Shown here: positions 2,507 to 17,873 of the stretch, piece after piece | Position numbering within the stretch: the first letter of the stretch is position 1 | Layout of the letters: each line of letters starts with the position of its first letter | From: a virus | Virus record (IMG/VR): IMGVR_UViG_3300027791_000009 | Location: 55,870-119,869 of that record | Strand: one strand, 5' to 3' | DNA: 64,000 nucleotides | Program-made: the position numbers and the translations under genes | Notes under the pieces: generated by a model | Database searches by the model: none | Seen by the model: the letters and a program-made list of their open reading frames with translations, nothing else | What the model was told of the DNA's origin: nothing

Positions 2507-5500
2507 ATGCCAAGTCCAACTGACTTTAACCTCTCGCCGTACTATGACGATTTCTCGGAAGATAAAGCCTTCCATAGAATATTGTTTAGACCAGCATTTG
2601 CTGTACAGGCTAGAGAACTAACACAATCGCAAACGATACTACAGAACCAAATTGAAAAGATGGGTAACCATATCTTTGAGCAAGGTGCTCAAATGATTCC
2701 TGGTGAGATTACTTACGATTTACAATACTATGCGATTAAGTTAACATCATTTACAGGTACAAGTAATCTAACAGACTTTGTTGGAATAGAAGTAACCGGT
2801 CAAACATCTGGTGTTGTTGCGAAAGTAATTAATTCAGATGTCGCAACTTCTACTGACCCTGCAACTCTTTATGTAAAATACACTAAAACAGGAACTGGAA
2901 ATCAAACACCAGACTTTGTTGCTGGCGAAACAATTTTAGGTGTACTTAATGGAAGTACAAATATTAGTGGAGTGGTTACAAGTGCTGAAACCGGTTCTGC
3001 TGCTTCAGTTGCTTCTGGTACTTACTACATTAATGGTTATGCTGTTAATGTTTCAAAACAAACAATTGTATTAGACAAGTATACAAACACACCATCTTAC
3101 AGAGTAGGTCTAACGGTTACTGATAGTATTGTAACCCCTAACTTAGATGTCTCACTTGTAGACAATGCAGCCGGTTCATCAAACGCAAATGCTCCAGGTG
3201 CTCACAGATTTAAAATAGATTTAACTTTATCTAAACTTACAACGACTTCTGTTGAAGATTCAAGCTTCATAGAGTTATTAAGATTAGAAAAAGGTACTCT
3301 CCAGAATAGAGTTAGAACAACTGAATACTCTATTTTGGAAGATACACTAGCAAGAAGAACTAGTGACGAAAGTGGCGATTACACAATCAGACCATTTGAT
3401 TTAGATATTAGAGAACATTTAGATGATACTGCTGGCAATAGAGGTATCTTTACTGCTGCCGCTGGTGGTGACGCTAACAAACTTGCATTAGGTTTATCTC
3501 CTGGTAAAGCATATGTAAAAGGTTATGAAGTTGATAAAATTGGAACAACTTTTGTTCCTGTAGAAAAACCTAGAAGTTTTGGAAATGAAAATGGTTTCAA
3601 TACTATCTTTGATGTTGGTAACTTTCTCAATGTATCAAATGCTTATAACTCTCCGGACATTAACTTTGTAACCGGTAAGACAGAAGCGTTTAAAGGATTA
3701 CAACTAAAACTTGCTAGTGAAGCATATACTGCTGGTAACATACCAACAAATGTTCAAAACAGAGTAAAAGACATCGGTCGTGCTAAATCTAAAGGTTATG
3801 AATTTAACGCAACGACAGGTGCTGGCATTTCAACTGCTTCAAACATATCTCCGTCTTCAAGTAATATATTCAAACATTATCTGTTTGATGTAGAAATGTT
3901 TAGTCATATAAAAATTCCAACAAATGTAGTATTTACAAATGGTGAAACAATCACTGGTACTACTTCAGGTGCTAACGGTATTAAAGAAAGTGTTTCAACA
4001 AATACAACTTCGGCAATCGCTACATCAACAGCTGCAAATCCAGTAGTTATCACAATGTCTGCTGATTTAGAAGTTTCTGATGGTGACGCAATTACGATAG
4101 CAGGTGTCGCAACTCAAACAGAATTAAACGACATTGTTTTCTATGTAAGACAAAAAGTTGGTGGTGTTGCAAAAAGAGAATTTGAATTGTATAACGCTGA
4201 TGATGTTGCCATTGACGGTACAGGACATACAGGTGCTGGTTCCGGTGGTACTATCACAACATCTTGTGTAGTATTATCAAGTGTACAAGGTCAATTTATA
4301 CCAGGTGAAACAATCACTGGTGGTACTTCATCTAATACTGCTGTAGTAAAAGCAAATGTATTTGGCAATCAAGGTTTCACACATTACGGTTCAAGTGATG
4401 TAAAAGAAGTTACCATGGCAGGAAGTCCAGTATATACTGCACAAGCTGATTTATCTGCAACATATGGAGAAAATAAAACACTATCTGGTAATATTTCAAT
4501 TAGTGCTTCAACTTCGGATGTAACCGGTTTCAACACACAATTTTTAACAGAATTAAAAGTAGGAGATAGTGTTCAGTTTGCAACAACGACTGGTACTATT
4601 TTAACTAGAACGGTAATTAACATTGTCAATTCATCTTCAATCAGACTTGATAGTGCAATTTCAACAACTGCCGTTTCAAACTCATTGATTATAAGAAGAA
4701 GAGGAAAATTACAAGACGCAAGTAAAAACATTTCGTTGTTCTCTTTACCTTACACAACAATTAAAACATTAAAAACAGCAAACAACTCTGGTATTTCTGA
4801 TACATCATTTATTGTAAGAAAAACATTTGTAGGTTCTTTATCTTCAACTGGTGATATTACAATTACTGCAAACACAGGCGAAACTTTTGTTGCACAACAA
4901 GAACAAGATTATTCGGTAACTATTATGTCAGCAGGTGGTTCATCTTCTGCTGGTACAGCTGGTGACAAGATATCTACAACAGGTAATAACCATGAAGGTA
5001 ATGCTTGTTTCACATTAGGTGGTTCTCCAGTAGGTCGTTCATTAACTTTAGATTTTGGTGCTAATCACTCTGACCACGAAGTAAAAATTATTGCGACTAT
5101 ATCTAAATCTGCACAAAACGAAAAATCAAAAAATTTAGTATCAAACTCGACAGCAACTATTACAACTTCAGCAGCTGCAACTGCAAATCATATTTCATTA
5201 GGTGTTGCTGACGGATATCAATTAGTATCTGTTAAAATGGCGGCTGACTTTAGTACAACACCAACTGCAAGTGATACAGACATCACAACAAGATTTACAC
5301 TTGATAGTGGACAAAGAGATAACTTCTATGATATTGCTAGACTAGTAAGAAAAGAAGGTAGCTTGGCACCAAGTGGACAATTATTAATTACATTTAATTA
5401 TTTCACACACGGTTCTGGTGACTTCTTTAGTGTAGATAGTTATTCTGGTATTATTGATTACACAGCAATACCTAGTTATACTTCTGATACTTCAGGAGAA

Positions 5501-8500
5501 ACTTATCAATTAAGAGACACATTAGACTTTAGACCTAGAGTAGATGACGCAAGTACAATTAACTCTGGTACACAAGATAGAACTTATCCTGCAACAGCTT
5601 CAATTGAAGTTGTTAAGTTTAAAACAAATGTGACCACAGACCACGAATTTTACAAAGGAAGAGTTGATAAACTATTCTTAAATAAAGAAGGTGCCTTTGA
5701 AGTACTTAAAGGTGCTGAAGCAAATGTACCACAAGAGCCAGGTTCTATTGATAACGCAATGCACCTATACACTCTTTCTTTACCACCGTACACATTGTCA
5801 CCAGATGATGTATCATACGAGACGGTAGAAAATAGAAGATATACAATGAGAGATATTGGTGCTATTGATAAGAAGATTGATAGAATTGAATATTACACTC
5901 AATTGTCTCTATTAGAAACTGCGGCTCAATCTTTACAGATACAAGACGCTGATGGTTTCGATAGATTTAAAAATGGATTTGTTGTAGACAACTTTAACGG
6001 TCACGGTATCGGTGAAGTAACCAACGGTTCATACAGATGTTCGATTGATTATGCAAAAGGCGAATTAAGACCTTTGTTTAACCAAGACGCTGTAAAACTA
6101 GAAGAGATTGACGAAGACGGTACAACATTAGTTGCTACTGACAGAGCGGCTGCAAACTATCAAAAGTCTGGTGATGTACTAACATTACCATTTACAGAAA
6201 TAGATTTAATAAATCAACCTTTTGCTTCTAAAGCAATTAATGTTAACCCATTTGCAATTTTCAGTTGGATGGGAACAATAGATTTAACACCATCAAGTGA
6301 TGAATGGAGAGAAACACAAAGAACTCCTGATTTAGTAGTTAACTCAACTACAGGTGCGTGGGACCAATTACAAAGACAAAGTGGTATTACAGACCAAGAT
6401 GAAATCTCACTTGGAACGGTATGGAATGAATGGCAAACTAACTGGACTGGAAGAGCATTAACATCTTCAACTACAGCTTCAGGTGGAAGATTTATGCGTG
6501 GTCGTGCTATTGTACAAAGAACAGAAACTACTTCTATCAACCAAGTTAACCAAAGTAGGTCAGGTATTACAACAACTGCCGTACCTCAAACGATAAGAAC
6601 ATCTATGGGAGATAGAGTTGTTAGTGTTGCATTTGTACCATTTATCAGAAGCCGTGATGTTGCATTTAAAGCTACAAGATTAAAACCAAATACAAGAGTA
6701 TTTCCATTCTTTGATAATGTAAATATTGCTACTTATTGTACACCAGACGGTGGTTCAGTTGGTGGTAACTTAATTACTGACGGTGCTGGTGCTGTTGAAG
6801 GAGTATTCACAATACCGGATCCTAAAGTAAATACAAATCCTAGATGGAGAACTGGAGAAAGAACATTTAGATTAACTTCTTCTTCTACTAACTCGCAAGA
6901 CGCAGCTGCTGTTGCTACTGCGGCTAATGCTGAATATATTGCAAGAGGATTATTAAATACCGTTAGAGACACAATTGTTTCTACAAGAGAATTTAGAGGT
7001 GTACAACAAACGGTTACAGATTCACAAACCATTTTACAAACATCTACAAGAGCAGGTACGCAAATTGTTGGTTGGGTTGATCCATTATCTCAAACATTTA
7101 TGACAGATGAACCTGGTGGAGTATTCATATCTTCTGTTGATTTATTCTTTTCAACAAAAGACGCAAACATTCCTGTAACCGTTCAAATTAGAAATACGGT
7201 TAATGGTTATCCTGGAAGTAAATTATTACCATTTGGTGAAGTTTCATTAAATCCAACTGCTGTAAATACAAGTACAGACGGTTCAGTTAAAACAACATTT
7301 ACATTCCCTGCACCAATATACATACAAGATAAAGTTGAATATGCAATGACGGTATTGTCTAACTCAAATGATTACAATATGTATGTGGGTAGATTAGGAG
7401 AAACAAATATTGGTTCTAATAGAACAATATCTAAACAACCATATGCTGGTGTTATGTTCAAATCTCAAAACGGTTCAACTTGGACTGCTGAACAAAACGA
7501 AGATATGAAATTCACAATGAAAAGATGTGAGTTTAGTAATGTCGTAGGTACGGTTCACTTAGGAAGTAAAGAACTACCGGCACAAAATATTAAACAAAAC
7601 GGATTAAGAACTACAAACGGTTCAGGTGTAATTAGAGTTTTCTATTCAAATCACAATATGCACGATACTAATTCTGTGGTTACTATATCTGGTGTTCCTT
7701 CAGGAACTCTTAACGGTATTGCTTCGACAGATATAAACGGAACATATACTTCTATTTCTAATATTACATTAGATAGTTTTGATATTACAACATCAGGAAC
7801 TGCAAATACTGATGGTGATATCGGAGGCACAACAATACTTGTTACCGGTAATAAACAATTTGATGTATTAAATCTAGGTGGTCTACAAACTATGACCGTT
7901 CCTGGTACAAACATTGAACCGTTTATTAGAACAACATCTAGTAAGTCACTTCACGGTGCTCAAACACCATATTCATTAGTTTCTGAAAGTAATAGACAAT
8001 CGGTTACATTAGTAGACGATATTTACTTTACTGCGCCACAGGCTGTTATGTCTGGACCAAATGAAACAACTAGAATGGCAGGACAAAAATCTTTCTATAC
8101 TATTATGAAATTATCAACGACAAATAATAAGTTGTCTCCAGTAATTGATTTAGATAGAAGTAGTGCTTTCTGTGTTGCAAATAGATTAAATAATCCAACT
8201 AGTGGTAATACACCTAACTATGTTCCTGAAACTACTGCAAAAGGTTCATCAACTGCGTCTCAATATATTACGAAACCGGTTACACTTATTAATAACTCAA
8301 CTGCATTAGATATTAGATTAACACAAGTTATTAGAGATACTTCTAAAGTTGAAGTTTACTTTAGAACAACAAGTGCTGATGAAGTTAGAACTATCGGAGA
8401 CATTGACTGGACACCTTTCAATGCTGGTGGTGTTGAAGATAATTCAGTTTCAAAATCTAAAGATGATTTTGATTTTAAAGAATATCAATATTCACAAGAA

Positions 8501-8608
8501 CAATTGAACGCCTTTACTGCGTTTCAGATTAAGATTGTACTAAAAGGAACTAATACTAGTTACCCACCAATCTTACGAGACATGAGAGGTATCGCATTAG
8601 CGATTTAA
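2507..8608 (+). CDS. Giant virion structural protein with DUF4815-type N-terminus
   Basis: 2033 residues. The first about 130 residues (LSPYYDDFSEDKAFHRILFR, then FAVQARELTQSQTILQNQIE) match the DUF4815 family of marine T4-like phages, usually annotated as a baseplate-associated or long-fibre virion protein. Recurrent modules follow: 'G.TITG.TSG' units near residues 485 and 600 that resemble beta-strand turns in phage fibres, a central region with several YTI/RDIGAIDKKIDRIEYY helices near residue 1120, and a C-terminus ending RDMRGIALAI. The family's exact place in the particle is unclear; peripheral baseplate is my inference. Reading frame is intact with no sign of decay. It follows the gp8-like gene by 12 bases. 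Confidence 0.7.
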   Translation: MPSPTDFNLSPYYDDFSEDKAFHRILFRPAFAVQARELTQSQTILQNQIEKMGNHIFEQGAQMIPGEITYDLQYYAIKLTSFTGTSNLTDFVGIEVTGQTSGVVAKVINSDVATSTDPATLYVKYTKTGTGNQTPDFVAGETILGVLNGSTNISGVVTSAETGSAASVASGTYYINGYAVNVSKQTIVLDKYTNTPSYRVGLTVTDSIVTPNLDVSLVDNAAGSSNANAPGAHRFKIDLTLSKLTTTSVEDSSFIELLRLEKGTLQNRVRTTEYSILEDTLARRTSDESGDYTIRPFDLDIREHLDDTAGNRGIFTAAAGGDANKLALGLSPGKAYVKGYEVDKIGTTFVPVEKPRSFGNENGFNTIFDVGNFLNVSNAYNSPDINFVTGKTEAFKGLQLKLASEAYTAGNIPTNVQNRVKDIGRAKSKGYEFNATTGAGISTASNISPSSSNIFKHYLFDVEMFSHIKIPTNVVFTNGETITGTTSGANGIKESVSTNTTSAIATSTAANPVVITMSADLEVSDGDAITIAGVATQTELNDIVFYVRQKVGGVAKREFELYNADDVAIDGTGHTGAGSGGTITTSCVVLSSVQGQFIPGETITGGTSSNTAVVKANVFGNQGFTHYGSSDVKEVTMAGSPVYTAQADLSATYGENKTLSGNISISASTSDVTGFNTQFLTELKVGDSVQFATTTGTILTRTVINIVNSSSIRLDSAISTTAVSNSLIIRRRGKLQDASKNISLFSLPYTTIKTLKTANNSGISDTSFIVRKTFVGSLSSTGDITITANTGETFVAQQEQDYSVTIMSAGGSSSAGTAGDKISTTGNNHEGNACFTLGGSPVGRSLTLDFGANHSDHEVKIIATISKSAQNEKSKNLVSNSTATITTSAAATANHISLGVADGYQLVSVKMAADFSTTPTASDTDITTRFTLDSGQRDNFYDIARLVRKEGSLAPSGQLLITFNYFTHGSGDFFSVDSYSGIIDYTAIPSYTSDTSGETYQLRDTLDFRPRVDDASTINSGTQDRTYPATASIEVVKFKTNVTTDHEFYKGRVDKLFLNKEGAFEVLKGAEANVPQEPGSIDNAMHLYTLSLPPYTLSPDDVSYETVENRRYTMRDIGAIDKKIDRIEYYTQLSLLETAAQSLQIQDADGFDRFKNGFVVDNFNGHGIGEVTNGSYRCSIDYAKGELRPLFNQDAVKLEEIDEDGTTLVATDRAAANYQKSGDVLTLPFTEIDLINQPFASKAINVNPFAIFSWMGTIDLTPSSDEWRETQRTPDLVVNSTTGAWDQLQRQSGITDQDEISLGTVWNEWQTNWTGRALTSSTTASGGRFMRGRAIVQRTETTSINQVNQSRSGITTTAVPQTIRTSMGDRVVSVAFVPFIRSRDVAFKATRLKPNTRVFPFFDNVNIATYCTPDGGSVGGNLITDGAGAVEGVFTIPDPKVNTNPRWRTGERTFRLTSSSTNSQDAAAVATAANAEYIARGLLNTVRDTIVSTREFRGVQQTVTDSQTILQTSTRAGTQIVGWVDPLSQTFMTDEPGGVFISSVDLFFSTKDANIPVTVQIRNTVNGYPGSKLLPFGEVSLNPTAVNTSTDGSVKTTFTFPAPIYIQDKVEYAMTVLSNSNDYNMYVGRLGETNIGSNRTISKQPYAGVMFKSQNGSTWTAEQNEDMKFTMKRCEFSNVVGTVHLGSKELPAQNIKQNGLRTTNGSGVIRVFYSNHNMHDTNSVVTISGVPSGTLNGIASTDINGTYTSISNITLDSFDITTSGTANTDGDIGGTTILVTGNKQFDVLNLGGLQTMTVPGTNIEPFIRTTSSKSLHGAQTPYSLVSESNRQSVTLVDDIYFTAPQAVMSGPNETTRMAGQKSFYTIMKLSTTNNKLSPVIDLDRSSAFCVANRLNNPTSGNTPNYVPETTAKGSSTASQYITKPVTLINNSTALDIRLTQVIRDTSKVEVYFRTTSADEVRTIGDIDWTPFNAGGVEDNSVSKSKDDFDFKEYQYSQEQLNAFTAFQIKIVLKGTNTSYPPILRDMRGIALAI

Positions 8609-8842: not shown

Positions 8843-10144
8843 ATGGCTGTAAGACAGGTAACAGAAACAGATAGTTTAGATAAATTACGAATAGAATTTA
8901 ACGCATTAGCGTCCTCAGATTTTGGTGATATTGCCACTCTGGATGCTACTTTATCTGCTACTTCTGTAATTGGTGCTGTTAACGAAATCAATGGTATTGC
9001 AATTGCAGCTGCTGGTTTCACATTAACAGATGGAACGAATGTACAAGGTATTGCCTCTGGTAACACATTAACCGTAGCGAGTGGTACAGGTCTTACTGCA
9101 ACGGTATCAAATCCAGATACATTAACAATCGGATTAAATACAAACTTAACTGGTCTATCAACAATTGATGTTGCAACAACAGCTGAGATTGCGAACATAC
9201 AGATTGGTACTTCTTCAATTACTTCTGCAAGTGGTACAATTGATTTTGGTAACGAACAATTAAATACAACAGGTGGTATATCTGCCGGTGGTACACTTGT
9301 TGGTGCTGGATTAACAATCAATGGTGCTTCAATGCAATTTGAAGGTGCTACTCCTAATAGTTTTGAAACTACATTACGAGTAGACGACCCATCACAAGAT
9401 AATGTAATTACACTACCTGACGCTAGTGGTACTCTTATTACTTCTGGTGATACGAATACGGTTACACAAACTATGATAGCAGATAATGCTGTAAGTACTT
9501 CACAAATTGCTGATAACTCGGTTACGATTGCAAAACTATCAGGATTTAATTCTGCAACATTAACGGTTGACACTTTAGTTGCAAATACTATTACAGGTAC
9601 TGCTTCATTATCAAGTGCTGTAGATTTAACTACTGAAAATACTCAAAACGCAACAAGATATTTAACTTTTGCTGATAGTACTTCAGGTTCAAATGTTCTA
9701 AAAGCAGATTCAGGATTATATTACAATCCATCAACAAATATTTTAACAACAACTGCTACATCAGCAAGATATGCTGACTTGGCAGAAAAGTATAAATCTG
9801 ATAGAGAATATCCAGTAGGTACCGTCTTATGTATAGGTGGCACAGCTGAGGTAACTATATGTACAGAAAATCATTGCACAAAAGTTATTGGTGTTCAATC
9901 AGAAAAACCTGCCTTTATTATGAATGGCAGTTTAGAAGGTGTTACCTCTACGGTAGCAATGACAGGAAGAGTACCAGTAAGAGTATGTGGTCCTGTAAGA
10001 AAAGGCGATATGTTAGTATCTTGTAGTATTGCAGGATGTGCTAGAGCTGAAGCAGAACCAAGAAACGGTGCATTAATTGGAAAAAGTTTAGTCAATGACG
10101 ATTCTAACGAAGAGAGAGTTATAGAAGCTGTTGTTGGTAAATAA
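8843..10144 (+). CDS. Tail-fibre-like structural protein
   Basis: 433 residues. The middle is a repetitive fibre sequence: 'LTVDTLVANTITGTASLSSAVDL' style beta-prism repeats, and a 'FETTLRVDDPSQDNVITLPDASGTLI' segment near residues 170-195 that recurs in the fibre genes at 21518 and 23254. The last about 125 residues form a distinct folded domain (ADLAEKYKSDREYPVGTVLC, then VIGVQSEKPAFIMN, then GRVPVRVCGPVRKGDMLV), a C-terminal domain common to many marine phage fibres. It contains seven cysteines, unusual in a fibre. It begins two bases after the previous stop and is followed by a strong AAGGAG site for the accessory cluster. Confidence 0.75.
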   Translation: MAVRQVTETDSLDKLRIEFNALASSDFGDIATLDATLSATSVIGAVNEINGIAIAAAGFTLTDGTNVQGIASGNTLTVASGTGLTATVSNPDTLTIGLNTNLTGLSTIDVATTAEIANIQIGTSSITSASGTIDFGNEQLNTTGGISAGGTLVGAGLTINGASMQFEGATPNSFETTLRVDDPSQDNVITLPDASGTLITSGDTNTVTQTMIADNAVSTSQIADNSVTIAKLSGFNSATLTVDTLVANTITGTASLSSAVDLTTENTQNATRYLTFADSTSGSNVLKADSGLYYNPSTNILTTTATSARYADLAEKYKSDREYPVGTVLCIGGTAEVTICTENHCTKVIGVQSEKPAFIMNGSLEGVTSTVAMTGRVPVRVCGPVRKGDMLVSCSIAGCARAEAEPRNGALIGKSLVNDDSNEERVIEAVVGK

Positions 10145-10155
10145 GGAGATATATT

Positions 10156-10635
10156 ATGGACGAACAAACAATCTTATGGATTTCCAGATTAAAAGAAGAA
10201 ATCCAATCACACACTAGATACGAAGCAAGACAACTATTTTACATAGATGAAGAAGGACTTGACCGTGAGGTTAAAGACCATATGTCTTATGGAGAATGGA
10301 TAAGAGAGTACGATAGATTTAAAACTATTAAGGTGGAAGGCTTAGAAGATGTAGCCTGGTTAAAAGAAGTTTTAGACGAAGTAGTATTGAATATCACAGG
10401 AAAGAAAAGACAAGATATTCATTTATTTGTAAATCAGAAACCAGGTATTAGTTTTAAAGAACATAAAGATGATAAAGATGTTTACTTATATGTTGTCAAA
10501 GGCAAAAAGAAAGTATCTTTAGATGGTGTTATTAAACCAGTATATGATGATGAAGGAATATTCATAGAACAAGGTGTAAAACATTATGTTGAAAACGAAG
10601 CAGATACTTGGGGGTTAAGTATAGGAGTTATATAA
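10156..10635 (+). CDS. JmjC/cupin-like putative 2OG-Fe(II) oxygenase
   Basis: 159 residues, start chosen for the AAGGAGAT site nine bases upstream. Residues 93-159 resemble the double-stranded beta-helix of small JmjC/Cupin-type oxygenases: a 'PGISFKEHKDDKDVYLYVVKGKKKV' run places His103 and Asp105 as an HxD iron pair, and 'IEQGVKHYVEN' supplies His143 as the third ligand. In this family a 2-oxoglutarate-dependent enzyme hydroxylates a protein side chain. The N-terminal 90 residues are acidic and unrecognised. Its stop codon overlaps the ATG of the first radical SAM gene, so the two are probably translated together. A non-catalytic cupin is the alternative. Confidence 0.5.
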   Translation: MDEQTILWISRLKEEIQSHTRYEARQLFYIDEEGLDREVKDHMSYGEWIREYDRFKTIKVEGLEDVAWLKEVLDEVVLNITGKKRQDIHLFVNQKPGISFKEHKDDKDVYLYVVKGKKKVSLDGVIKPVYDDEGIFIEQGVKHYVENEADTWGLSIGVI

Positions 10636-11666
10636 TGAATTGGATGTTTTATTTAAAAACAACCGAAACCTGCAACTTGAATTGTAAACATTGTTTTACT
10701 TCAGGTTCAAATGGTCCTAAAGTCTATTGGAATCCAGATAAAACCATTAAGTGGTTACAAGATTTCAGAAAATACAATTTTCACAAACACGATACAGCAC
10801 ATTTAGAACTACACGGTGGCGAACCGTTTTTAGTTCCTGTGTCTGAAATGCAATATGTCTATGAGAACACAAAAGATTTGTGGATTCAACAATCAATGGG
10901 CATAACTTCTAACTTAACATTTAAACTAAAACAAGAACACATTGACTTCATTAAAGGTCCACTTAAAAATAGATGTGGAACTAGTTGGGATCCTAACATA
11001 AGATTTGCAAATGAGAAACAAGCAAACTTATGGCGTAAGAATGTAGAGACTTTAATTAGTGAAGGTGTTGATATTAAACTCTTCATATCAGTAACCAAAG
11101 ACACAATTAGAATTGAACCTATTGAATTACTTAAATGGGTTAAAGATTTAGGTGTAAAAGAAATGGCACTTGAAAGATTGACTGGAAATGGTAATGCAAA
11201 CTTGCATCCAGAGATATTTCCTAGAAATATAGAACAAGATAAGTGGTTTTTAAAAATGCACGAGCAATCTATTCAGTATAACACAAGAGATTGGTTTGAT
11301 AATGAGTTTTTTGAAACAATTTACTCAAAATTTGATACTGGTTCAACAAAAGAAGGCACTTTCTGCCGAGATTGTGAACAAAAACTATTTACACTTAACG
11401 CAACTGGCACAATAGGTGGTTGTCCTAATGCAGCTCCCGAGTTTAATTTTGGAACTATAGATGACCCTCTAGTAGAACTTATAAATAGTCCTAAGAGATT
11501 AGAAAATGTTGCTTGTGAAGTAGCAAGAAATCCTAAATGCTTTGAGTGTGAAGTATTTAAGTATTGTGGTGGCGATTGTCACCAATTAGCATGGCAAGAC
11601 GACATATGTGGCGCTCCTAAATCTCTTATGAAACACTTAAAAAAACAAAGTGAGGCGAAATGGTAA
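10635..11666 (+). CDS. Radical SAM enzyme with SPASM-like C-terminus (A)
   Basis: I place the start at 10635, in a TAATG overlap with the preceding gene and behind an AGGAG at 10623-10627, giving 343 residues; an ATG at 10608 has no ribosome site. Cys13-x3-Cys17-x2-Cys20 is the radical SAM cluster motif, and HGGEPF near residues 59-64 is the SAM-binding GGE motif. The C-terminus has two cysteine groups: GTFCRDCEQ with GGCPNA, then CFECEVFKYCGGDC...DICG, matching a SPASM domain that binds auxiliary iron-sulphur clusters. Such enzymes are typical maturases of ribosomally made peptides and of proteins (anaerobic sulfatase maturase type). The next gene, the CHxS-tailed protein, overlaps its end by seven bases, so it is a plausible substrate. 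Confidence 0.85.
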   Translation: MNWMFYLKTTETCNLNCKHCFTSGSNGPKVYWNPDKTIKWLQDFRKYNFHKHDTAHLELHGGEPFLVPVSEMQYVYENTKDLWIQQSMGITSNLTFKLKQEHIDFIKGPLKNRCGTSWDPNIRFANEKQANLWRKNVETLISEGVDIKLFISVTKDTIRIEPIELLKWVKDLGVKEMALERLTGNGNANLHPEIFPRNIEQDKWFLKMHEQSIQYNTRDWFDNEFFETIYSKFDTGSTKEGTFCRDCEQKLFTLNATGTIGGCPNAAPEFNFGTIDDPLVELINSPKRLENVACEVARNPKCFECEVFKYCGGDCHQLAWQDDICGAPKSLMKHLKKQSEAKW

Positions 11667-12433
11667 CTTTAAACAACCCGATAACAAGTCAAAATATAGT
11701 TGATAGATTTGAAGAACTGGTAACAGATGTAGCAGACCACCATATTGTATGGGGTACTGATAATCTACCAGGACACTCTTCATTTACTTCTGCTGATTTT
11801 GGTGGTGTTGTTGACGGATTTGAATTAACACTAACAGGTGTGACTGGAACTTATACAGCAGGTGAAACGGTTAACTCTACAATAACTGCAACAACTGGTA
11901 TCGTAGTTAGTTATTCTAGCAATGTATTAAAATTAAGAACAATTAATCCAGGTGCTGGTCAAACAGGATTCTTACAAAACGATATTATATCAGGCACTTC
12001 TTCAGGTGCTGTAGGTACGGTTAATACTTTAGCAGTAATAAGTGCTGTATCAATTGGTATCACAGGTTCTAATATCGGTAATGCAGGTTCAGTAATTACT
12101 GCAAACAATATTTACGGTACACTAAAAGCAGAAATGAATAATTATACTAATATCAAAAATACATACGCTATAGTTAGTATGACAGGTGCAGGAACACAAT
12201 ATTCGGATACACAAATTGCACACTTAACAACTGCACAAAGAACAACATTAAATCCATCACAACCTAGTAGTTTACAACCTGGTCAAACAATTGACGATAC
12301 AAATTTAGAATCGTTTATGTCGAGCCTTGCAAACGCATATTCTACTGAAAGAGGTAACACTTATACATTAACAAAAACTATATGTCATAGTAGCTGTCAT
12401 AGTAGTTGTCACGGAAGTAGAGGAAGAAGATAA
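11660..12433 (+). CDS. Virion-like protein with C-terminal Cys-His-x-Ser repeat; candidate radical SAM substrate
   Basis: 257 residues. The body is a Thr/Gly/Ser-rich, beta-rich structural sequence with units such as 'GTYTAGETVNSTITATTG' and 'ISGTSSGAVGTV' that recur in the baseplate and fibre proteins of this window. The last 16 residues are CHSSCHSSCHGSRGRR: three perfectly spaced Cys-His-x-Ser units (Cys242, 246, 250; His243, 247, 251) followed by a basic end. This resembles the His-Xaa-Ser tails of HxsA-type proteins, which accompany two radical SAM maturases. Here radical SAM genes lie immediately before and 1.8 kb after. It overlaps radical SAM gene A by seven bases and shares TAATG with the next gene. 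Modification of the tail is inference; metal binding by the unmodified tail is an alternative. Confidence 0.75.
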   Translation: MVTLNNPITSQNIVDRFEELVTDVADHHIVWGTDNLPGHSSFTSADFGGVVDGFELTLTGVTGTYTAGETVNSTITATTGIVVSYSSNVLKLRTINPGAGQTGFLQNDIISGTSSGAVGTVNTLAVISAVSIGITGSNIGNAGSVITANNIYGTLKAEMNNYTNIKNTYAIVSMTGAGTQYSDTQIAHLTTAQRTTLNPSQPSSLQPGQTIDDTNLESFMSSLANAYSTERGNTYTLTKTICHSSCHSSCHGSRGRR

Positions 12434-13098
12434 TGATTAATACTATTGTACCGATTGAATTGAAAGACTTAAAAAAATACTTTGAAGATAAGACAGAAAG
12501 TTATCTTATTGATTACGAAAACAGCACATTAAAAGGTGCTCAGTTTCTAACCTATTTAAGTAATTTAGATATACCTTGTGATATATTAAATATGGACGAA
12601 GAACTAATTAGTGAATATCTTAACACACAAATGTTAGTAAATATACCTAAATTAGAAAAAGAAATAATCGCTGTATTATTTGAACACAAGGGGTTGTCAA
12701 AGACAGATAAATATAAGAGTGTTATAGAAAAGAACAAAGAAATACTTGACAAGTGGGAAGGCAAATTAGAAAGTCTACCATTGTATAATATGTCAATCGT
12801 TGGTGAAGGTGCTTTTAATGAATTTGTTGAGAGTTATCCTAAAGACGAGACAGAAGATGTTAGAGGTATTAACTTTGTTTCATTATTAAAACACAAAGAA
12901 TTTTATAGTTATTATCAAATACAAAAAGAAGGTATTGTTAAGAACTATACGAAGTACTTTAAAGATTATATGTTTAAAGGTAAATCTTTATTTGAATATT
13001 GGGCGACAGAAAGTAATCCACTATTCTTAATGACTTGGGCAATTGCCGAAGGTAAATTTGATACAAAAGAATATTTAAAAGGTAAAGAGAAAAACTAA
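12433..13098 (+). CDS. Unknown protein of the radical SAM cluster
   Basis: 221 residues, Lys/Glu/Leu-rich, with no recognised domain and no membrane segment. It reads as a mainly helical soluble protein. The start codon overlaps the stop of the CHxS-tailed protein (TAATG), so the two should be made in matched amounts, which would suit a chaperone, a leader-recognition partner or an assembly factor of that protein. Those roles are inference from position only. Confidence 0.65.
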   Translation: MINTIVPIELKDLKKYFEDKTESYLIDYENSTLKGAQFLTYLSNLDIPCDILNMDEELISEYLNTQMLVNIPKLEKEIIAVLFEHKGLSKTDKYKSVIEKNKEILDKWEGKLESLPLYNMSIVGEGAFNEFVESYPKDETEDVRGINFVSLLKHKEFYSYYQIQKEGIVKNYTKYFKDYMFKGKSLFEYWATESNPLFLMTWAIAEGKFDTKEYLKGKEKN

Positions 13099-13099
13099 T

Positions 13100-14215
13100 A
13101 TGCTACACTTATTTAATAAAGTCTATTTAGCGTTTGACGATTCAATTGATTGTCATACAAACAGATATGTAATATCAGCAGAAACTGGTAATGAAATGCA
13201 CCAGGAACTGCAAACTACATACAGAGGAACTTTAATTAACTATTCACACAATGTTAATGCAATGGCAGGTAAGTATACTGACTTAACTGGTTTCTTTGAA
13301 GATGTAAAATTAAAACAAAGTACTCTAGGTACTAAAGTTATTATTTACTGCGATAGTGAAGCATACTTAAACTTATCAGTAACCTGGTTAAAAACTATGT
13401 TACCATTTGTTGACCAAACAGCAGTACAGAAGTTTTTAGATATTAATTTACACCACGAAAAAATTATTGCAAATACACAATTGCAACCTACTCACACGCT
13501 AGCGCTAACAAAAATTAATGCTGGTCTAGGAGATGTTGCAGGATATTTTAATGTATTACCTACACTTGATTTAGATAGAATTAAAGCTCTTAATTTAAAT
13601 TTCTCAATTGAATTATTATTAGGCGAATACTTTGCAGGTGCTGATACTCACCAAGCAAACTTATTGTCTACTTGGCATTTATTCTTAAAAAGATTTTATA
13701 AAGAAGTATTAACAGATAGTAGAGAAGGTGCTGCTCTAAATCTTTTGAATACTAATCAACAAACTGCATTAGGTTATACTAGTGATGATGTTGATTTAAA
13801 TAATGACAATCCATTTTCAGGTATTACACCATTAGCACCATTTGCTGACGAAGATGTATTTACGCAAAAACCTACTGCAAATGTAGGTGCTGTAAATATT
13901 GCAAACATTGACGGTCTTTCAACAGACAAACAAACTGCATTGAAAGCATTAATTAAAGACCTATATGATTTCCAAAACTCTCCGGATCCTGATTACTTTA
14001 TGAACCATTTAGATAAAGCTTGTGCTTCAAGTTTATCTTCTACTGACTTTGATACAATTATAACTGAAACCGTGAATAGTCCATCTAGTCTATCTTTTAT
14101 TCCTAGATTTGATATTGGAAATATTAATTATACATTTTTACAATATCTCTTCTCATTAAAGAAATCTAACGATACAGACAAACTAGGAAAATACAGACTA
14201 TTCGCAAACTCATAG
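13100..14215 (+). CDS. Unknown protein of the radical SAM cluster, possibly structural
   Basis: 371 residues starting two bases after the previous gene. The first 110 residues look folded and mixed (LFNKVYLAFDDSIDCHTNRYVI, then GTKVIIYCDSEAYLNL), the middle is helical, and the last third (FADEDVFTQKPTANVGAVNI onward) is less charged. No catalytic motif or known family is visible. It might be an adaptor joining the modified protein to the particle, or another substrate. A GGAG before 14224 separates it from radical SAM gene B. Confidence 0.6.
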   Translation: MLHLFNKVYLAFDDSIDCHTNRYVISAETGNEMHQELQTTYRGTLINYSHNVNAMAGKYTDLTGFFEDVKLKQSTLGTKVIIYCDSEAYLNLSVTWLKTMLPFVDQTAVQKFLDINLHHEKIIANTQLQPTHTLALTKINAGLGDVAGYFNVLPTLDLDRIKALNLNFSIELLLGEYFAGADTHQANLLSTWHLFLKRFYKEVLTDSREGAALNLLNTNQQTALGYTSDDVDLNNDNPFSGITPLAPFADEDVFTQKPTANVGAVNIANIDGLSTDKQTALKALIKDLYDFQNSPDPDYFMNHLDKACASSLSSTDFDTIITETVNSPSSLSFIPRFDIGNINYTFLQYLFSLKKSNDTDKLGKYRLFANS

Positions 14216-14223
14216 GAGTTTAA

Positions 14224-15276
14224 ATGCGAGAGTTTTTAATAGACCCCAAAAGAGACCCAGAGCAAGAGTACACTATTCATTTATTTGAATTTTGTAATTT
14301 GCGTTGTAATTTCTGTTGGCAGAACCACGACAATAAAATCGGTGTTGATAATGTGGTTGACAAACTTCCTTCTATAGAAAAATTTATCTCAAAAGAAATG
14401 TATATGAAGGTCACCTTTAATATTATGGGTGGCGAAGTCTTTGCACCTGCAATCTATAACAAAGATTTAAATGACGGATATAAACTTCTAGTAAAAGGCA
14501 TAAAAAAGATATGTCAAAAACACAATAAAGAATTTTCAATCAATTGGGTGTCTAACTTGGTTACCTCAGATGAAGGTAATGAACTTATTATGGACTTACT
14601 CACTTGGTCCAGAGAAGAAGATATACCTAGTAGACTTACAACAAGTTATGACCCACGAGGTAGATTTAATAAAAAAGACTTTGAGATATTTAAATCTAAT
14701 GTAGAATTTTGGGGTGATGAAGTAACCTGTTTTTCTTGTTTACTTACAAAGCCTAATATTAACTTTTATTTAAATGAAGGTGATGAATACTTTGACTATC
14801 TGTATAAACAAGGTAAGTATATTTACTTTGATTATTATATGCCAGATGAACACGCAAAGTTTAATATGCCTGGCGATGAACTATTATTAAAGTTTTTTAA
14901 ACATTGTGTTGACAAATATCCTAATGTTCATCCTGTTAGAGATTGGATATTTAACAAAAAGAATTATGCAAGTTGTAGAGTTTCAAAACTTGTATTAGCA
15001 GATGGTACATTATGTCAATGTGGTAACCTTGTACAAGAAGAACAAGATATAAGTCAATACAAGTCGCCCATTAAACCAAGAGACAATAGTATAATAGAAA
15101 ACTCTTTCCTAGAGAAGTATAATTGTAGTAGTTGTGAATTTTTAGATAGATGTACACTTGGCTGTTTTATGAACCATGATTATAGATACAAGGAGGAGTT
15201 GGATGAATGTGTTTACAAGCTTACGCACCGATATATCGAAGATGTACGAGTACAGCGAAACTATATCGCAAACTAA
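14224..15276 (+). CDS. Radical SAM enzyme with C-terminal cysteine clusters (B)
   Basis: 350 residues. Cys24-x3-Cys28-x2-Cys31 (FCNLRCNFCW) is the radical SAM motif and 'IMGGEVFAP' near residues 75-83 is the GGE-like SAM-binding motif. The C-terminus carries CRVSK, LCQCGN and CSSCEFLDRCTLGC followed by a later Cys, a SPASM/Twitch pattern for auxiliary clusters. It is only distantly similar to gene A outside these motifs, so the cluster was not made by a recent tandem duplication. The next gene starts inside it, 74 bases before its end. Peptide or protein modification is the likely role; the substrate is not known. Confidence 0.85.
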   Translation: MREFLIDPKRDPEQEYTIHLFEFCNLRCNFCWQNHDNKIGVDNVVDKLPSIEKFISKEMYMKVTFNIMGGEVFAPAIYNKDLNDGYKLLVKGIKKICQKHNKEFSINWVSNLVTSDEGNELIMDLLTWSREEDIPSRLTTSYDPRGRFNKKDFEIFKSNVEFWGDEVTCFSCLLTKPNINFYLNEGDEYFDYLYKQGKYIYFDYYMPDEHAKFNMPGDELLLKFFKHCVDKYPNVHPVRDWIFNKKNYASCRVSKLVLADGTLCQCGNLVQEEQDISQYKSPIKPRDNSIIENSFLEKYNCSSCEFLDRCTLGCFMNHDYRYKEELDECVYKLTHRYIEDVRVQRNYIAN

Positions 15277-15835
15277 ATTAGGCTATAATTTTCCTAAACA
15301 TATCGAAGTACAACTAGATTACTTTCCTGTTGAGAAACCATATCTTCCTAGAATAGATGGTAGACGAGCACATATGTTTTTATGGTTAGGCAAGAAAGAA
15401 GAGGATCCTGAACTATACGAGATTGCACAAAAAACAAAAGGTGAGAGACAATGGGTTCAAAATGGTACGCCTAGCACTTATATTAAGGGCGTAGGTATGT
15501 TTCATATCTATAATGAGTATGTTATAGTCGGTTCTTTAAAATATGCAGGATACATGAAGAACAGACCTCCAACAGAAAACAGAAAACTAATTAGACAAAT
15601 GTGGTGTGATACGATAAACATATTTAAAGGTAGAGATATATTATGTCCGTCTGGTACTTACTTTGATTGGTTACACCTGACAATGAATCAAATGAGAGCA
15701 CAGAAAGAACCATATCATAGAGAAATAATGTGGCAGTTTGGTTTTGACAAAGTTAAAGAAGGTAAACTAAAAGATTACTGGATTAGAAATAAAGAATCTA
15801 CTACAGGATTGAACTGGATAGGAAAATGGATTTAA
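15203..15835 (+). CDS. Unknown protein of the radical SAM cluster
   Basis: I place the start at 15203 because AGGAGG at 15191-15196 lies six bases upstream; the ORF could open at 15176 but no ribosome site supports that. The product is 210 residues, aromatic and basic, with a compact segment 'GTPSTYIKGVGMFHIYNEYVIVGSLKYAGYM' and a conserved-looking 'GTYFDWLHLTMNQMR'. I recognise no family or catalytic motif. It begins 74 bases inside radical SAM gene B and overlaps radical SAM gene C by ten bases, tying its expression to both; a partner or substrate-recognition subunit is possible. Confidence 0.65.
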   Translation: MNVFTSLRTDISKMYEYSETISQTKLGYNFPKHIEVQLDYFPVEKPYLPRIDGRRAHMFLWLGKKEEDPELYEIAQKTKGERQWVQNGTPSTYIKGVGMFHIYNEYVIVGSLKYAGYMKNRPPTENRKLIRQMWCDTINIFKGRDILCPSGTYFDWLHLTMNQMRAQKEPYHREIMWQFGFDKVKEGKLKDYWIRNKESTTGLNWIGKWI

Positions 15836-16920
15836 TAATTAAACCTACTGAACTTTGTAATTTCAAATGCTCATTTTGTTCTAGTACGCAGCTTACAGAT
15901 GAGAAAAAGAACTGGTTAAAACATGACCAGATATTTCGTTTTTTAGAAAGATTCCCAGAAACAAAAACAATCATAGTAAATGGTGGTGACCCATTAATGA
16001 TGGAACCTAATTACTATTGGAAGATTATTGATTGGTTAGATGAAAGAGAATATACTACTTCACTTGCATTAACGACAAACTTATGGCCGTTCTATAAGAA
16101 ACCTAGTAAGTGGGTTGACTTATTTAATAACGAAAGAGTTGGTATCACAACTTCTTTTCAATATGGTGGTGGTAGATTAAAAGGTGACTATTCTGAATTT
16201 ACAGAAGAGGACTTTTATAAGTGTTCAGACGCAATGTTAGAACATTGTGGTTATAGACCAGACTTTATATCCGTTATTACAAGAGAGAATGAACACAACG
16301 CAATAAAGAATGTTGAACTTGCAAAGAAGATGTCCGAACAGAAAATACCTGAAGGCACATTACATAACTTCTGGAGAGAAGAGAAGACAGGTGTAGAATG
16401 TAAATTGAATTATGCAATGGCAAGTGGCGAACAAAAAGAGCCGTTTTTGTTATCAGATATATATGAGAAGTATGTAGAGATTTATAAGGCAGGTCTAGCA
16501 CCTTGGGAGTTTAATACTAGACAGATGATGTTAGCAATAAATGATACTGCTACAAGTTGTCCGTTAAGTAGAAAATGTGATGAAGGTATAAGATGTTTAC
16601 AACCAGATGGTGACTACTATAGTTGTGGTGCATTTGGTGATGATAAAGACAAAGCGATAGACTTTGAAGAAGAAATGAAAGGTAAGTTTTTTACACCTTT
16701 ACAAGATGACTTAAATTTATCTACAATGAAGAAAAGTTGCTATAGTTGTCCTATGTTTAACATATGTAATGGTTGTAGAAAGACCGTGAAAGATTATAAA
16801 GAGGCAGGAGTTGTAGAGAAACATTGTGAGAAGATGAAAAGAATTGGAAAAGATATTTTGGTTGCAAATAATAAATCACATATAGAAATGACACCTTATG
16901 AGAGAGAATATGTTAGTTAA
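15826..16920 (+). CDS. Radical SAM enzyme with SPASM-like C-terminus (C)
   Basis: 364 residues. Cys11-x3-Cys15-x2-Cys18 (LCNFKCSFCSS) is the cluster motif, and 'VNGGDPLMM' near residues 51-59 is the GGD/E motif. Later cysteines occur as SCPLSRKCDEGIRCLQPDGDYYSCGAF and CYSCPMFNICNGC...KHC, a full SPASM arrangement. The 'D/E...PDG..Y.CG' context before the last cysteines is typical of SPASM proteins acting on peptides. It overlaps its upstream neighbour by ten bases, and the downstream oxygenase begins inside its last 23 bases, so an oxygenase and a radical SAM enzyme are again directly coupled, as at 10156-10635. Confidence 0.85.
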   Translation: MDLIIKPTELCNFKCSFCSSTQLTDEKKNWLKHDQIFRFLERFPETKTIIVNGGDPLMMEPNYYWKIIDWLDEREYTTSLALTTNLWPFYKKPSKWVDLFNNERVGITTSFQYGGGRLKGDYSEFTEEDFYKCSDAMLEHCGYRPDFISVITRENEHNAIKNVELAKKMSEQKIPEGTLHNFWREEKTGVECKLNYAMASGEQKEPFLLSDIYEKYVEIYKAGLAPWEFNTRQMMLAINDTATSCPLSRKCDEGIRCLQPDGDYYSCGAFGDDKDKAIDFEEEMKGKFFTPLQDDLNLSTMKKSCYSCPMFNICNGCRKTVKDYKEAGVVEKHCEKMKRIGKDILVANNKSHIEMTPYEREYVS

Positions 16921-17362
16921 GAATAATGTAATGACAAGTTTAGAACTCAATCATATGATTGCTGAACTAGGTAATCTAGGTAAAGAATATCCTATCTATG
17001 AGAAGAATGTTCACAAGAAATTACCAGACGACTGGAATTGGGTAGATAGTATTTGTAAATTAAATGTACCTGACATAAAACATTGTATTGTTAGATATGT
17101 TATTTCTGTAAATAGTAAAAACGAAGAAAAGAATATTATAGGTTTTCATACAGACAGCGATGTAAAAGGAGAGAAGACTATTATATTATATCTACAAGGT
17201 GATTTAAATAAAGGTGGACAAATACAAGTTGAAGATAAGACATATGACTTTAGACAAAACGCAATGTTTATTATGGACTCTCATTTAGTACATAGGGCAA
17301 TGCCTTATTGGGGAGAAAAGACAAGACTTGCAATTAAATGGAGATGGACAAGTGAGGGGTGA
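16898..17362 (+). CDS. 2OG-Fe(II) oxygenase (prolyl-4-hydroxylase-like)
   Basis: 154 residues counted from ATG 16898; in-frame ATGs at 16910 and 16931 are also possible because no site is decisive. The HxD...H...R pattern is clear: 'GFHTDSD' gives His84 and Asp86, 'LVHRAMPYWGEKTRLAIKWRW' gives His132 and the 2-oxoglutarate-binding Arg143. The intervening 'TIILYLQGDLNKGGQIQV' is the family's central beta hairpin. Such enzymes hydroxylate protein side chains or small substrates. It overlaps radical SAM C upstream and the next oxygenase downstream. Confidence 0.75.
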   Translation: MRENMLVKNNVMTSLELNHMIAELGNLGKEYPIYEKNVHKKLPDDWNWVDSICKLNVPDIKHCIVRYVISVNSKNEEKNIIGFHTDSDVKGEKTIILYLQGDLNKGGQIQVEDKTYDFRQNAMFIMDSHLVHRAMPYWGEKTRLAIKWRWTSEG

Positions 17363-17873
17363 ACACGATTTATCAAATCTGGTAATAAATGGAGTGTGGC
17401 CACATAAAGACCTTGCACCATTTAAATTCTTTGAAGGTATACAAATACCTTTTGTAGAAACAGATAAAGAGTATACGATTGCTGTACATACTGAAAAGGT
17501 AGCACACGCACTCGCCACAACCCACAAATATTTGGGTGATAAATATATTAGTAAGGTGTCTAGTAAATACGAATTACACGGACGACCAAACATTGTCAAT
17601 GGTGTAGACTATGAAAGTACACTATGGCACAATGACTTGAAAGAAGGAGCTAACATTGCTATACTAATGTACTTTACAAATGCCTGTAATGAAGAACAAG
17701 GTGGTTCTTTATCAGTAAGACATAAACAAACAAAGTCATTGTCTTGTTGGTTATATCCAGGTAAGAACGATTTAATATTTTTAAATCATAGTAAAGTATG
17801 GGAACACAAAGTTGGTAAATTTAAATTAATTAACAATGAACGAATTGTAGGATGTTTTAATTATAATATATGA
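17352..17873 (+). CDS. 2OG-Fe(II) oxygenase
   Basis: The frame opens at a TTG (17328), but I prefer GTG 17352, which has GGAG at 17340-17343 and overlaps the upstream gene by 11 bases; this gives 173 residues. The motif is 'LWHNDLKEG' (His93, Asp95), then 'NACNEEQGGSLSV', then 'VWEHKVGKFKLINNERIVGCF' supplying His152 and Arg164, the iron ligands and 2-oxoglutarate anchor. Phage enzymes of this shape are common in marine T4-like genomes, with targets mostly unknown. Two adjacent oxygenases of different sequence suggest different sites or substrates. Confidence 0.75.
   Translation: MRGEHDLSNLVINGVWPHKDLAPFKFFEGIQIPFVETDKEYTIAVHTEKVAHALATTHKYLGDKYISKVSSKYELHGRPNIVNGVDYESTLWHNDLKEGANIAILMYFTNACNEEQGGSLSVRHKQTKSLSCWLYPGKNDLIFLNHSKVWEHKVGKFKLINNERIVGCFNYNI

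What the first reader, a model, noticed from the sequence alone, without database searches (positions are those of the whole stretch)
11660..12433. Virion-like protein ending in three Cys-His-x-Ser units: candidate RiPP-like modified tail
Seen: C-terminal CHSSCHSSCHGSRGRR with exact four-residue spacing on a Thr/Gly-rich structural body. Known: HxsA-type proteins carry His-Xaa-Ser repeats and are encoded with two radical SAM maturases; the phage has radical SAM genes directly on both sides. Inference: the tail is the substrate, giving a thioether- or otherwise crosslinked, or metal-binding, tip on the virion, maybe at a tail tip or fibre joint.
Basis: partly seen in the sequence, partly recalled or inferred. 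Interest (0 to 1): 0.85.

Follow-up and report, generated by a model that had tools for sequence, protein, structure and literature searches.

The report
Viral fibre protein with enzyme-tailored tail
Many bacterial viruses, and a few relatives of predatory bacteria, carry a surface-fibre-like protein ending in the near-invariant CHxS-CHxS-CHxS tag, and wherever the sequence around it can be read a radical-SAM enzyme gene lies close by, so the tag is very probably chemically altered by those enzymes, although the chemistry has not been shown.

Summary
In detail: window 11660-12433 (+) encodes 257 aa ending CHSSCHSSCHGSRGRR. It is not a one-off. The same C-terminal tag closes a protein family (phrog_35144, unknown function) in about 75 nonredundant loci. 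Bodies are about 25% identical by median; in 64 aligned members all six Cys/His are invariant. Every locus long enough to judge has radical-SAM (rSAM) genes nearby (71/72, the exception a 1,083-bp fragment; chance pattern hits 1/47, itself a tailed relative). In reverse, all 76 assessable upstream-rSAM loci have a tailed gene, and body-only searches (14/14, 8/8) never found a tailless homologue. The cassette (cupin, SPASM rSAM, tailed protein, two unknown proteins, more rSAMs, 2OG oxygenases, sometimes a B12-rSAM) follows baseplate and fibre genes in relatives of pelagimyophages, and occurs in cultured Agrobacterium, Sinorhizobium, Burkholderia and Pseudomonas jumbo phages. One homologue continues after the tag into a Peptidase_S74 fibre chaperone. 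The cassette also sits in Bdellovibrionota contigs, at least two plainly chromosomal, beside prepilin-S74 fibre genes. Best reading: a fibre/baseplate-associated protein whose C-terminal tag is modified by the cassette's rSAM enzymes. The chemistry is unproven, and HxsA membership is not met.

The parts
11660..12433 (+). CHxS-tailed protein T (257 aa); conserved N-terminal helix + WGTxxxP region, a baseplate-like inserted domain (res. ~52-127), conserved C-terminal helix and strand, then the CHxS tail
   Evidence: ORF; family alignment A1; AlphaFold model mean pLDDT 89.6; phrog_35144 hit
12383..12430 (+). codons of the C-terminal tag CHSSCHSSCHGSRGRR (residues 242-257)
   Evidence: C242 H243 C246 H247 C250 H251 invariant in 64 homologues; low-confidence, probably flexible, in the model
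10635..11666 (+). r1: SPASM radical SAM enzyme immediately upstream of T (ORF listing starts it at TTG 10608; homologues start at ATG 10635)
   Evidence: Radical_SAM and SPASM hits; CxxxCxxC, GGEP and CX2CX5CX3C cysteines invariant in 30 orthologues; overlaps the start of T by 7 nt
10156..10635 (+). Cupin_2 protein (159 aa) upstream of r1
   Evidence: Pfam Cupin_2 2.2e-07; cluster c5 in 38 of 75 nonredundant loci
12433..13098 (+). c2 (phrog_20767, 221 aa), the gene most constantly next to T; unknown function, N-terminal alpha/beta region then helical
   Evidence: phrog_20767 5e-57; in 67 of 75 loci; model pLDDT 91.6, no clear PDB match
13100..14215 (+). c3 (371 aa), unknown function
   Evidence: in 49 of 75 loci
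14224..15276 (+). r2: second radical SAM (SPASM-like) gene
   Evidence: phrog_1802 9.2e-41
15176..15835 (+). 219-aa conserved protein (c13), no family match; start uncertain, overlaps r2 by 100 nt as called
   Evidence: in 13 of 75 loci
15826..16920 (+). r3: third radical SAM (SPASM-like) gene
   Evidence: Pfam Radical_SAM 9.5e-07 above cut-off; phrog_1802 1.1e-56
16898..17362 (+). putative 2OG-type hydroxylase (154 aa), weak hit
   Evidence: Asp_Arg_Hydrox 0.016; phrog_274 8e-12
17328..17873 (+). 2OG-Fe(II) oxygenase-like protein (181 aa)
   Evidence: 2OG-FeII_Oxy_3 2.1e-05, just under cut-off; cluster c8 in 27 loci
17870..18430 (+). 186-aa cassette protein of unknown function (c14)
   Evidence: in 7 loci
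18411..19382 (+). r4: fourth radical SAM gene
   Evidence: phrog_1802 6.8e-31
2507..8608 (+). VrlC-type baseplate protein (DUF4815, 2033 aa) that anchors the cassette's position
   Evidence: DUF4815 2.1e-51; 53% identity to VrlC of Pelagibacter phage Mosig
8613..8840 (+). small virion structural protein (phrog_473)
   Evidence: cluster c9 in 32 loci
8843..10144 (+). tail-fibre-like protein (433 aa) preceding the cassette
   Evidence: phrog_19602 tail fiber protein 2.8e-05 and phrog_22593 7.4e-15; cluster c4 in 46 loci

Best explanation
T is a fibre- or baseplate-associated protein of the virion's host-contact end. Its C-terminal tag (three, sometimes four, Cys-His-x-Ser units, usually closed by SRGRR) is a built-in substrate that the radical SAM enzymes of the same cassette modify before or during particle assembly. 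The rest of the protein acts as the folding and positioning platform, like a giant leader with a C-terminal core. The adjacent SPASM enzyme r1 is the most likely first maturase. It probably forms one or more crosslinks or oxidations on Cys/His/Ser, for example a thioether or a His/Cys C-X bond, repeated once per unit; the other rSAMs, 2OG oxygenases and cupin may add later steps. The product would be a rigid, possibly metal-binding, C-terminal tip that touches the host envelope. Shown here: tag invariance, the two-way linkage to rSAM genes, gene order, fibre/baseplate context, and a fibre-chaperone fusion. Inferred: that the tag is modified, by which enzyme, the bond type, presence in the particle, and the function of the tip.
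For: Tag C/H invariant in 64/64 homologues while median pairwise body identity is 25%; tail codons change almost only synonymously; most bodies carry no other Cys. Tail-to-rSAM: 71/72 loci (the exception is 1,083 bp) against 1/47 chance-pattern loci, that one (L049) being a tailed relative itself; Fisher p about 1e-30, loci not independent. Of 133 tailed loci, 123 matched the first rSAM HMM; eight of the other ten carry a divergent rSAM gene with CxxxCxxC in the locus or an rSAM in their record, leaving two cut fragments (L115, L176). rSAM-to-tail: 76/76 assessable r1 loci. Body-only queries found tails in 14/14 and 8/8. r1 usually ends within about 40 nt of T's start, same strand; r1-T-c2 order conserved. 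r1 has a full SPASM Cys set and its profile matches PDB entries named anaerobic sulfatase maturase and other radical SAM proteins. Fibre context: homologue L049 has Peptidase_S74 right after the tag (1.5e-11); insert domain resembles T4/KP1 gp7 (Z 7.0-7.5) and cyanophage structural proteins; position after gp8, VrlC and fibre genes, where PMC7029224 places the host recognition cluster and noted radical SAM cassettes. Same core cassette in four groups of cultured jumbo phages. In Bdellovibrionota loci it lies beside N_methyl + S74 proteins.
Against: No mass, structure or biochemical datum shows any modification. No protein of the family was verified in a particle: the Atu_ph07 virion-proteome cluster 'CDS 170-215' starts exactly at T (gp170), but all three clusters in that paper are 46 genes wide, so the boundary is not proof. 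The PDB matches of the insert domain are at a level that can be chance. Some cassettes lack the cupin, the 2OG oxygenases or c3, so most partners are not essential. Loci share ancestry, so the p-value overstates independence. In the double-T class the rSAM genes near T are of another subfamily and lie downstream. The Bdellovibrionota copies, at least two of them plainly chromosomal, show the system is not strictly a virion trait.
Confidence: 0.66

Rival explanations
1. The tag is an unmodified metal-binding tip: Cys/His stripes of subunits brought together in a trimer coordinate Zn or Fe, sharpening or rigidifying the end of a fibre or spike, as His/Cys metal sites do at known phage spike and PAAR tips. 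The rSAM genes act on something else (the neighbouring fibre, or host molecules) and travel with T because both are host-recognition genes.
For: CHxS spacing is a plausible metal ligand set; the S74 fusion points to a trimeric fibre; the tag is C-terminal and flexible in the monomer model; iron- and zinc-bearing phage tips are established knowledge.
Against: The linkage to rSAM holds in both directions with no exception among assessable loci and across very different phages and bacteria, and r1 is coupled to T itself rather than to the fibre genes. Metal sites usually tolerate Cys/His exchange; here none of 64 sequences swaps one.
Confidence: 0.15
2. T is not a structural protein but a large-leader RiPP precursor or delivered effector: the modified C-terminal peptide is released or injected into the host or a competitor.
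For: Enzyme mix of several SPASM rSAMs, a large B12-type rSAM cluster in 16 loci and 2OG oxygenases resembles elaborate RiPP pathways; C-terminal core with N-terminal leader-like body.
Against: No gene recognised as a peptidase or peptide exporter among the cassette families scanned; the body is a well-folded, domain-carrying protein rather than a leader; fusion to S74 and position among baseplate and fibre genes.
Confidence: 0.1
3. The tag is a recognition handle: the rSAM enzymes bind it but modify other residues in T's body or in neighbouring fibre proteins.
For: Several rSAM paralogues, a methyltransferase-type B12-rSAM and 2OG oxygenases exceed what a 16-residue tag needs; SRGRR is a plausible docking motif.
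Against: A docking tag would tolerate more change than the CHxS units do; two tag classes end in GS[IL] or a Gly-rich tail instead of SRGRR while keeping C, H and S, so the invariant part is the chemically reactive part.
Confidence: 0.09

Closest known systems
HxsA/HxsB/HxsC/HxsD (His-Xaa-Ser repeat system)
   Same: C-terminal repeats containing His-x-Ser, encoded with two or more radical SAM enzymes.
   Different: Period of four with an invariant Cys; no HxsA model hit; rSAMs score about 29-32 bits against HxsB/C cut-offs of 370 and 268; fibre-type body; viral.
SPASM radical SAM peptide maturases (PapB and SCIFF ranthipeptide, DynA dynobactin) and anaerobic sulfatase maturases
   Same: r1 has CxxxCxxC plus SPASM auxiliary-cluster cysteines; its best weak matches are DynA, sulfatase maturase and PapB; a Cys-containing substrate is encoded next door.
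   Different: About 42 bits against cut-offs of 340-450, so none of these subfamilies; substrate is a large folded fibre-like protein, not a short peptide.
phrog_35144 (PHROGs, unknown function; FLC6 gp72)
   Same: T is a distant member: 63 of 64 homologues match, mainly at the tail.
   Different: The PHROG carries no function and no link to radical SAM genes in its record.
Mosaic adhesive trimer (MAT) fibres of Bdellovibrio (PMC10769870)
   Same: Phage-fibre-like S74 proteins in Bdellovibrionota; the bacterial CHxS cassettes lie beside S74 proteins.
   Different: The neighbours here start with a prepilin methylation motif; 'pilin' does not occur in that paper's text; relation not tested.
Radical SAM cassettes in the host recognition cluster of pelagimyophages (PMC7029224)
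   Same: Same place after VrlC; the paper noticed radical SAM cassettes there.
   Different: The two passages on radical SAM found in that paper name no substrate, tag or function.

Membership tests
HxsA-type His-Xaa-Ser system | precursor matches the HxsA model | tested here: not met
   no NCBIfam hit for T up to E 0.1
HxsA-type His-Xaa-Ser system | maturases match HxsB and HxsC above cut-off | tested here: not met
   r1 31.7 bits vs 370; r3 29 bits vs 267.9
Radical SAM superfamily with SPASM domain (r1) | CxxxCxxC, GGEP and SPASM cysteine pattern | tested here: met
   invariant in 30 orthologues; SPASM model 33.1 bits vs cut-off 27
RiPP-like precursor/maturase pair | maturase gene adjacent to precursor gene, core more conserved than leader | tested here: met
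RiPP-like precursor/maturase pair | core is post-translationally modified | not testable with these tools
   needs mass spectrometry
RiPP-like precursor/maturase pair | leader removal and export genes in the cluster | tested here: inconclusive
   the cassette families scanned gave no peptidase or transporter hit; several are unknown
Ranthipeptide/sactipeptide (PapB, SCIFF) or dynobactin (DynA) maturases | maturase above the family cut-off | tested here: not met
   41.5 vs 340 (PapB), 25.5 vs 425 (SCIFF), 42.6 vs 450 (DynA)
Trimeric tail-fibre proteins with S74 chaperone | Peptidase_S74 domain in a T homologue | tested here: met
   L049 homologue, 1.5e-11, bits above cut-off; absent from the window's own T
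Virion structural protein | found in purified particles | not tested
   published Atu_ph07 proteome is suggestive but its protein list was not readable here

The most novel reading that the evidence does not exclude
An envelope-contact device with an rSAM-built C-terminal tip, encoded as a cassette with its own maturation enzymes and carried both by diverse tailed phages (relatives of pelagimyophages to jumbo phages) and by Bdellovibrionota bacteria beside pilus-like S74 fibres: a shared post-translationally crosslinked tip for contacting or breaching bacterial envelopes.
Probability: 0.35. Interest if true: 0.95.

Novelty: new variant of a known kind. Interest (0 to 1): 0.85.

Why it matters
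If true, a widespread set of phages (about 350 viral contigs with the r1 enzyme) builds part of the particle by radical SAM chemistry, which I found reported nowhere. It would give a function to a recurrent group of phage radical SAM, 2OG and cupin genes so far listed as auxiliary genes or genes of unknown function, and a defined, testable substrate. Its presence in Bdellovibrionota beside fibre genes suggests a common tool for touching other bacteria. The pair T + r1 is a ready-made test of a new protein modification.

Tried and rejected
HxsA kinship: rejected by family models. tblastn of T or of its tail against isolate phages found nothing useful, since bodies are too divergent and the short tail query gave no match; anchoring on r1 and c2 worked. 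Apparent rSAM-less exceptions (L098, L138, L139, L145, L146, L166, L168, L173) looked like a refutation until a divergent rSAM cluster (c10) was read in the loci, or, for L166, in its record. Literature strings for the motif returned only unrelated text. Fold search of T and c2 in the PDB gave no confident match; an absence there shows nothing. Profile search of T against PDB sequences gave none. A link between the bacterial 184-209-aa neighbour family and the phage fibre c4 was tested by HMM and not found. The idea that the bacterial hits were all phage contigs was rejected for two of them by reading their flanks; a prophage origin was not formally excluded for the rest. c2 does not look like a winged-helix RiPP recognition element from its predicted secondary structure (my reading).

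Full report
1. The observation. Window 11660-12433 (+) encodes 257 aa ending in CHSSCHSSCHGSRGRR. No other CHxxCH occurs in any frame of the window, and the triple-CH pattern occurs once in the 119,869-base IMG/VR record. The protein-level pattern with a stop codon is found in 90 viral stretches but only 5 stretches of 257 Gb of bacterial and archaeal genomes. In ten close relatives the tail's codons vary almost only synonymously (223 vs 33), unlike the body (2452 vs 2699).

2. The family. A looser pattern turned up many proteins of about 125-325 aa that end in this tag. They align as one family, T: conserved N-terminal helix and WGTxxxP region, variable middle, conserved C-terminal helix and strand, then the tag. 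All six Cys and His are invariant in 64 sequences, and Ser in 56, 57 and 63 of 64 at the three fourth positions; median pairwise body identity is 25% against 92% for the 12-residue tag; most bodies have no other Cys. Variants end in GS[IL] instead of SRGRR, or have four units. Sixty-three of 64 match phrog_35144, of unknown function.

3. Link to radical SAM genes. Among the 119 stretches, 72 have an in-frame tail and 71 of these have an rSAM gene within the locus; the other is a 1,083-bp fragment. Of 47 chance-pattern stretches only one has an rSAM gene, L049, and this is itself a tailed relative with a C-terminal extension. Over all 133 tailed loci, 123 matched the first rSAM HMM. Eight of the other ten carry a divergent CxxxCxxC rSAM gene (cluster c10) in the locus, or, for L166, rSAM genes in its record; two fragments (L115, L176) cannot be judged. 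The converse: of 80 r1 relatives, all 76 with enough downstream DNA have a tailed ORF within 4.5 kb. Searches using body peptides only found 14/14 and 8/8 with the tag.

4. Cassette. In 75 nonredundant loci the order baseplate protein (c6) - phrog_473 (c9) - fibre (c4) - cupin (c5) - r1 - T - c2 - c3 - r2 - ... recurs; c2 is in 67, c3 in 49, the main rSAM cluster in 69, the cupin in 38. r1 usually ends within about 40 nt of T's start on the same strand; in the window it overlaps T by 7 nt and T's stop overlaps c2's start. r1 has CxxxCxxC, GGEP and a full SPASM cysteine set, invariant in 30 orthologues. Other members are 2OG oxygenases (c7, c8) and, in 16 loci (c12), a radical SAM protein, with a B12-binding hit in one of the two scanned. 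The GS[IL]-tailed loci lack the cupin and share c21 and c12 where the contig reaches; they may be one clade, so this is only suggestive. Some partner genes are missing in some loci.

5. Where it sits and what T is. The window's 2033-aa protein is 53% identical over its first 1331 aa to VrlC of Pelagibacter phage Mosig. PMC7029224 treats VrlC as a baseplate component replacing gp7, defines the island after it as the host recognition cluster, and remarks on radical SAM gene cassettes there. A T4 gp8 homologue lies further upstream in a relative (c25). Mosig itself has VrlC and the small gene but no radical SAM cassette in its annotation there. The AlphaFold model of T is confident except for the tag. 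Its inserted domain, present in the window's subfamily, has T4 and KP1 gp7 as best PDB matches (Z 7.0-7.5, a level that can be chance), and in BFVD matches cyanophage structural proteins as well as the Atu_ph07 protein. The strongest sign of a fibre is homologue L049: after CHTSCHSSCHDSCHGDSPGTGDGTD comes SDERLK and a Peptidase_S74 domain (1.5e-11). Its relative L042 simply stops at CHGDGPGNGGGV, so self-cleavage of L049 would yield the same kind of end (inference).

6. Isolates. The core cassette occurs in Agrobacterium phage Atu_ph07, Sinorhizobium phage Phosso, Burkholderia phages FLC6, FLC8 and SURPRISE13 and Pseudomonas phage pPa_SNUABM_DT01. T was read out in Atu_ph07 (gp170), Phosso, FLC6 (gp72) and pPa_SNUABM_DT01, ending CHSSCHASCHNSRSRR, CHTSCHASCHSSRSRR, CHSSCHTSCHGSRGRR and CHTSCHTSCHSARGRR. 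For Atu_ph07 a virion proteome exists; one virion-protein cluster is 'CDS 170-215' and gene numbering agrees (gp215 = major capsid), but the three clusters are all 46 genes wide, so I do not count this as detection.

7. Beyond phages. The tag pattern occurs in 9 of 368 genomes of the phylum of a Halobacteriovoraceae MAG, with no control (reversed) match. NCBI places Halobacteriovoraceae in Bdellovibrionota. In eight of the nine loci the tailed ORF was called and matched the T model; the ninth (L318) shows c2, c3 and rSAM matches but its T was not called. Two flanks look plainly chromosomal: L311 beside fatty-acid oxidation genes and L312 beside cbb3-oxidase-like genes (my reading of the sequences). 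Four loci (L311, L312/L300, L313, L314) have, near the cassette, a protein with Peptidase_S74, and in three of them also an N_methyl prepilin hit (2e-05 and 2.9e-05 above cut-off, 0.001 just below); L311's protein has a prepilin-like N-terminus by eye only. This suggests, without proving it, that T works with S74 fibres there too.

8. Mechanism and certainty. I commit to: the tag is a substrate of the cassette's rSAM enzymes, r1 first, and the product is a hardened or metal-binding tip on a host-contact fibre. Shown: invariance, two-way linkage, order, context, S74 fusion. Inferred: the modification, its chemistry, the enzyme-substrate pair, presence in particles, function. Overall 0.66. The metal-only, released-RiPP and docking-tag rivals are kept at 0.15, 0.10 and 0.09.

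9. Known or new. It is not an HxsA system: no HxsA hit, rSAMs far below the HxsB/C cut-offs, though it may work like one. It is not a PapB, SCIFF or DynA system by cut-off. My paper searches (PMC open-access only) found radical SAM genes merely listed in such phages. I therefore file it as a new variant of a known kind (rSAM maturation of an adjacent substrate), with the categorically new reading given separately.

Noticed in passing
L311, L312/L300, L313, L314: Bdellovibrionota contigs carry the r1-T-c2 cassette near a protein with a Peptidase_S74 C-terminus, three of the four with a prepilin N_methyl hit, plus a conserved 184-209-aa family of unknown function.
   Followed up: partly
L049:2486-3436 (-): T homologue whose CHxS tag is followed by a Peptidase_S74 domain with a SDxxxK motif; self-cleavage would expose the tag as the new C-terminus.
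   Followed up: yes
L048:3-1619 (-), L040:6477-8366 (-): Large radical SAM protein (cluster c12, 16 loci), with a B12-binding hit in L040, in cassettes unlike the window's; suggests C-methylation somewhere in the pathway.
   Followed up: no
L066, L067, L082, L098, L138, L139, L145, L146, L166, L168, L173: Class with two small tandem T genes (about 125 and 130 aa) and rSAMs of another subfamily (c10), up to five in a row (L066, L082); perhaps a heteromeric tip.
   Followed up: partly
G004 (record of L145, 159,618 bases): Fourteen phrog_1802-type radical SAM matches in one viral record, two groups far apart.
   Followed up: no
window 16898-17362: Protein with a weak Asp/Arg beta-hydroxylase match also hits phrog_274, labelled 'DNA endonuclease V'; that label looks doubtful.
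   Followed up: no
window 19372-20166: 264-aa protein after the last rSAM gene (phrog_30607, unknown function), shared with 6 loci.
   Followed up: no
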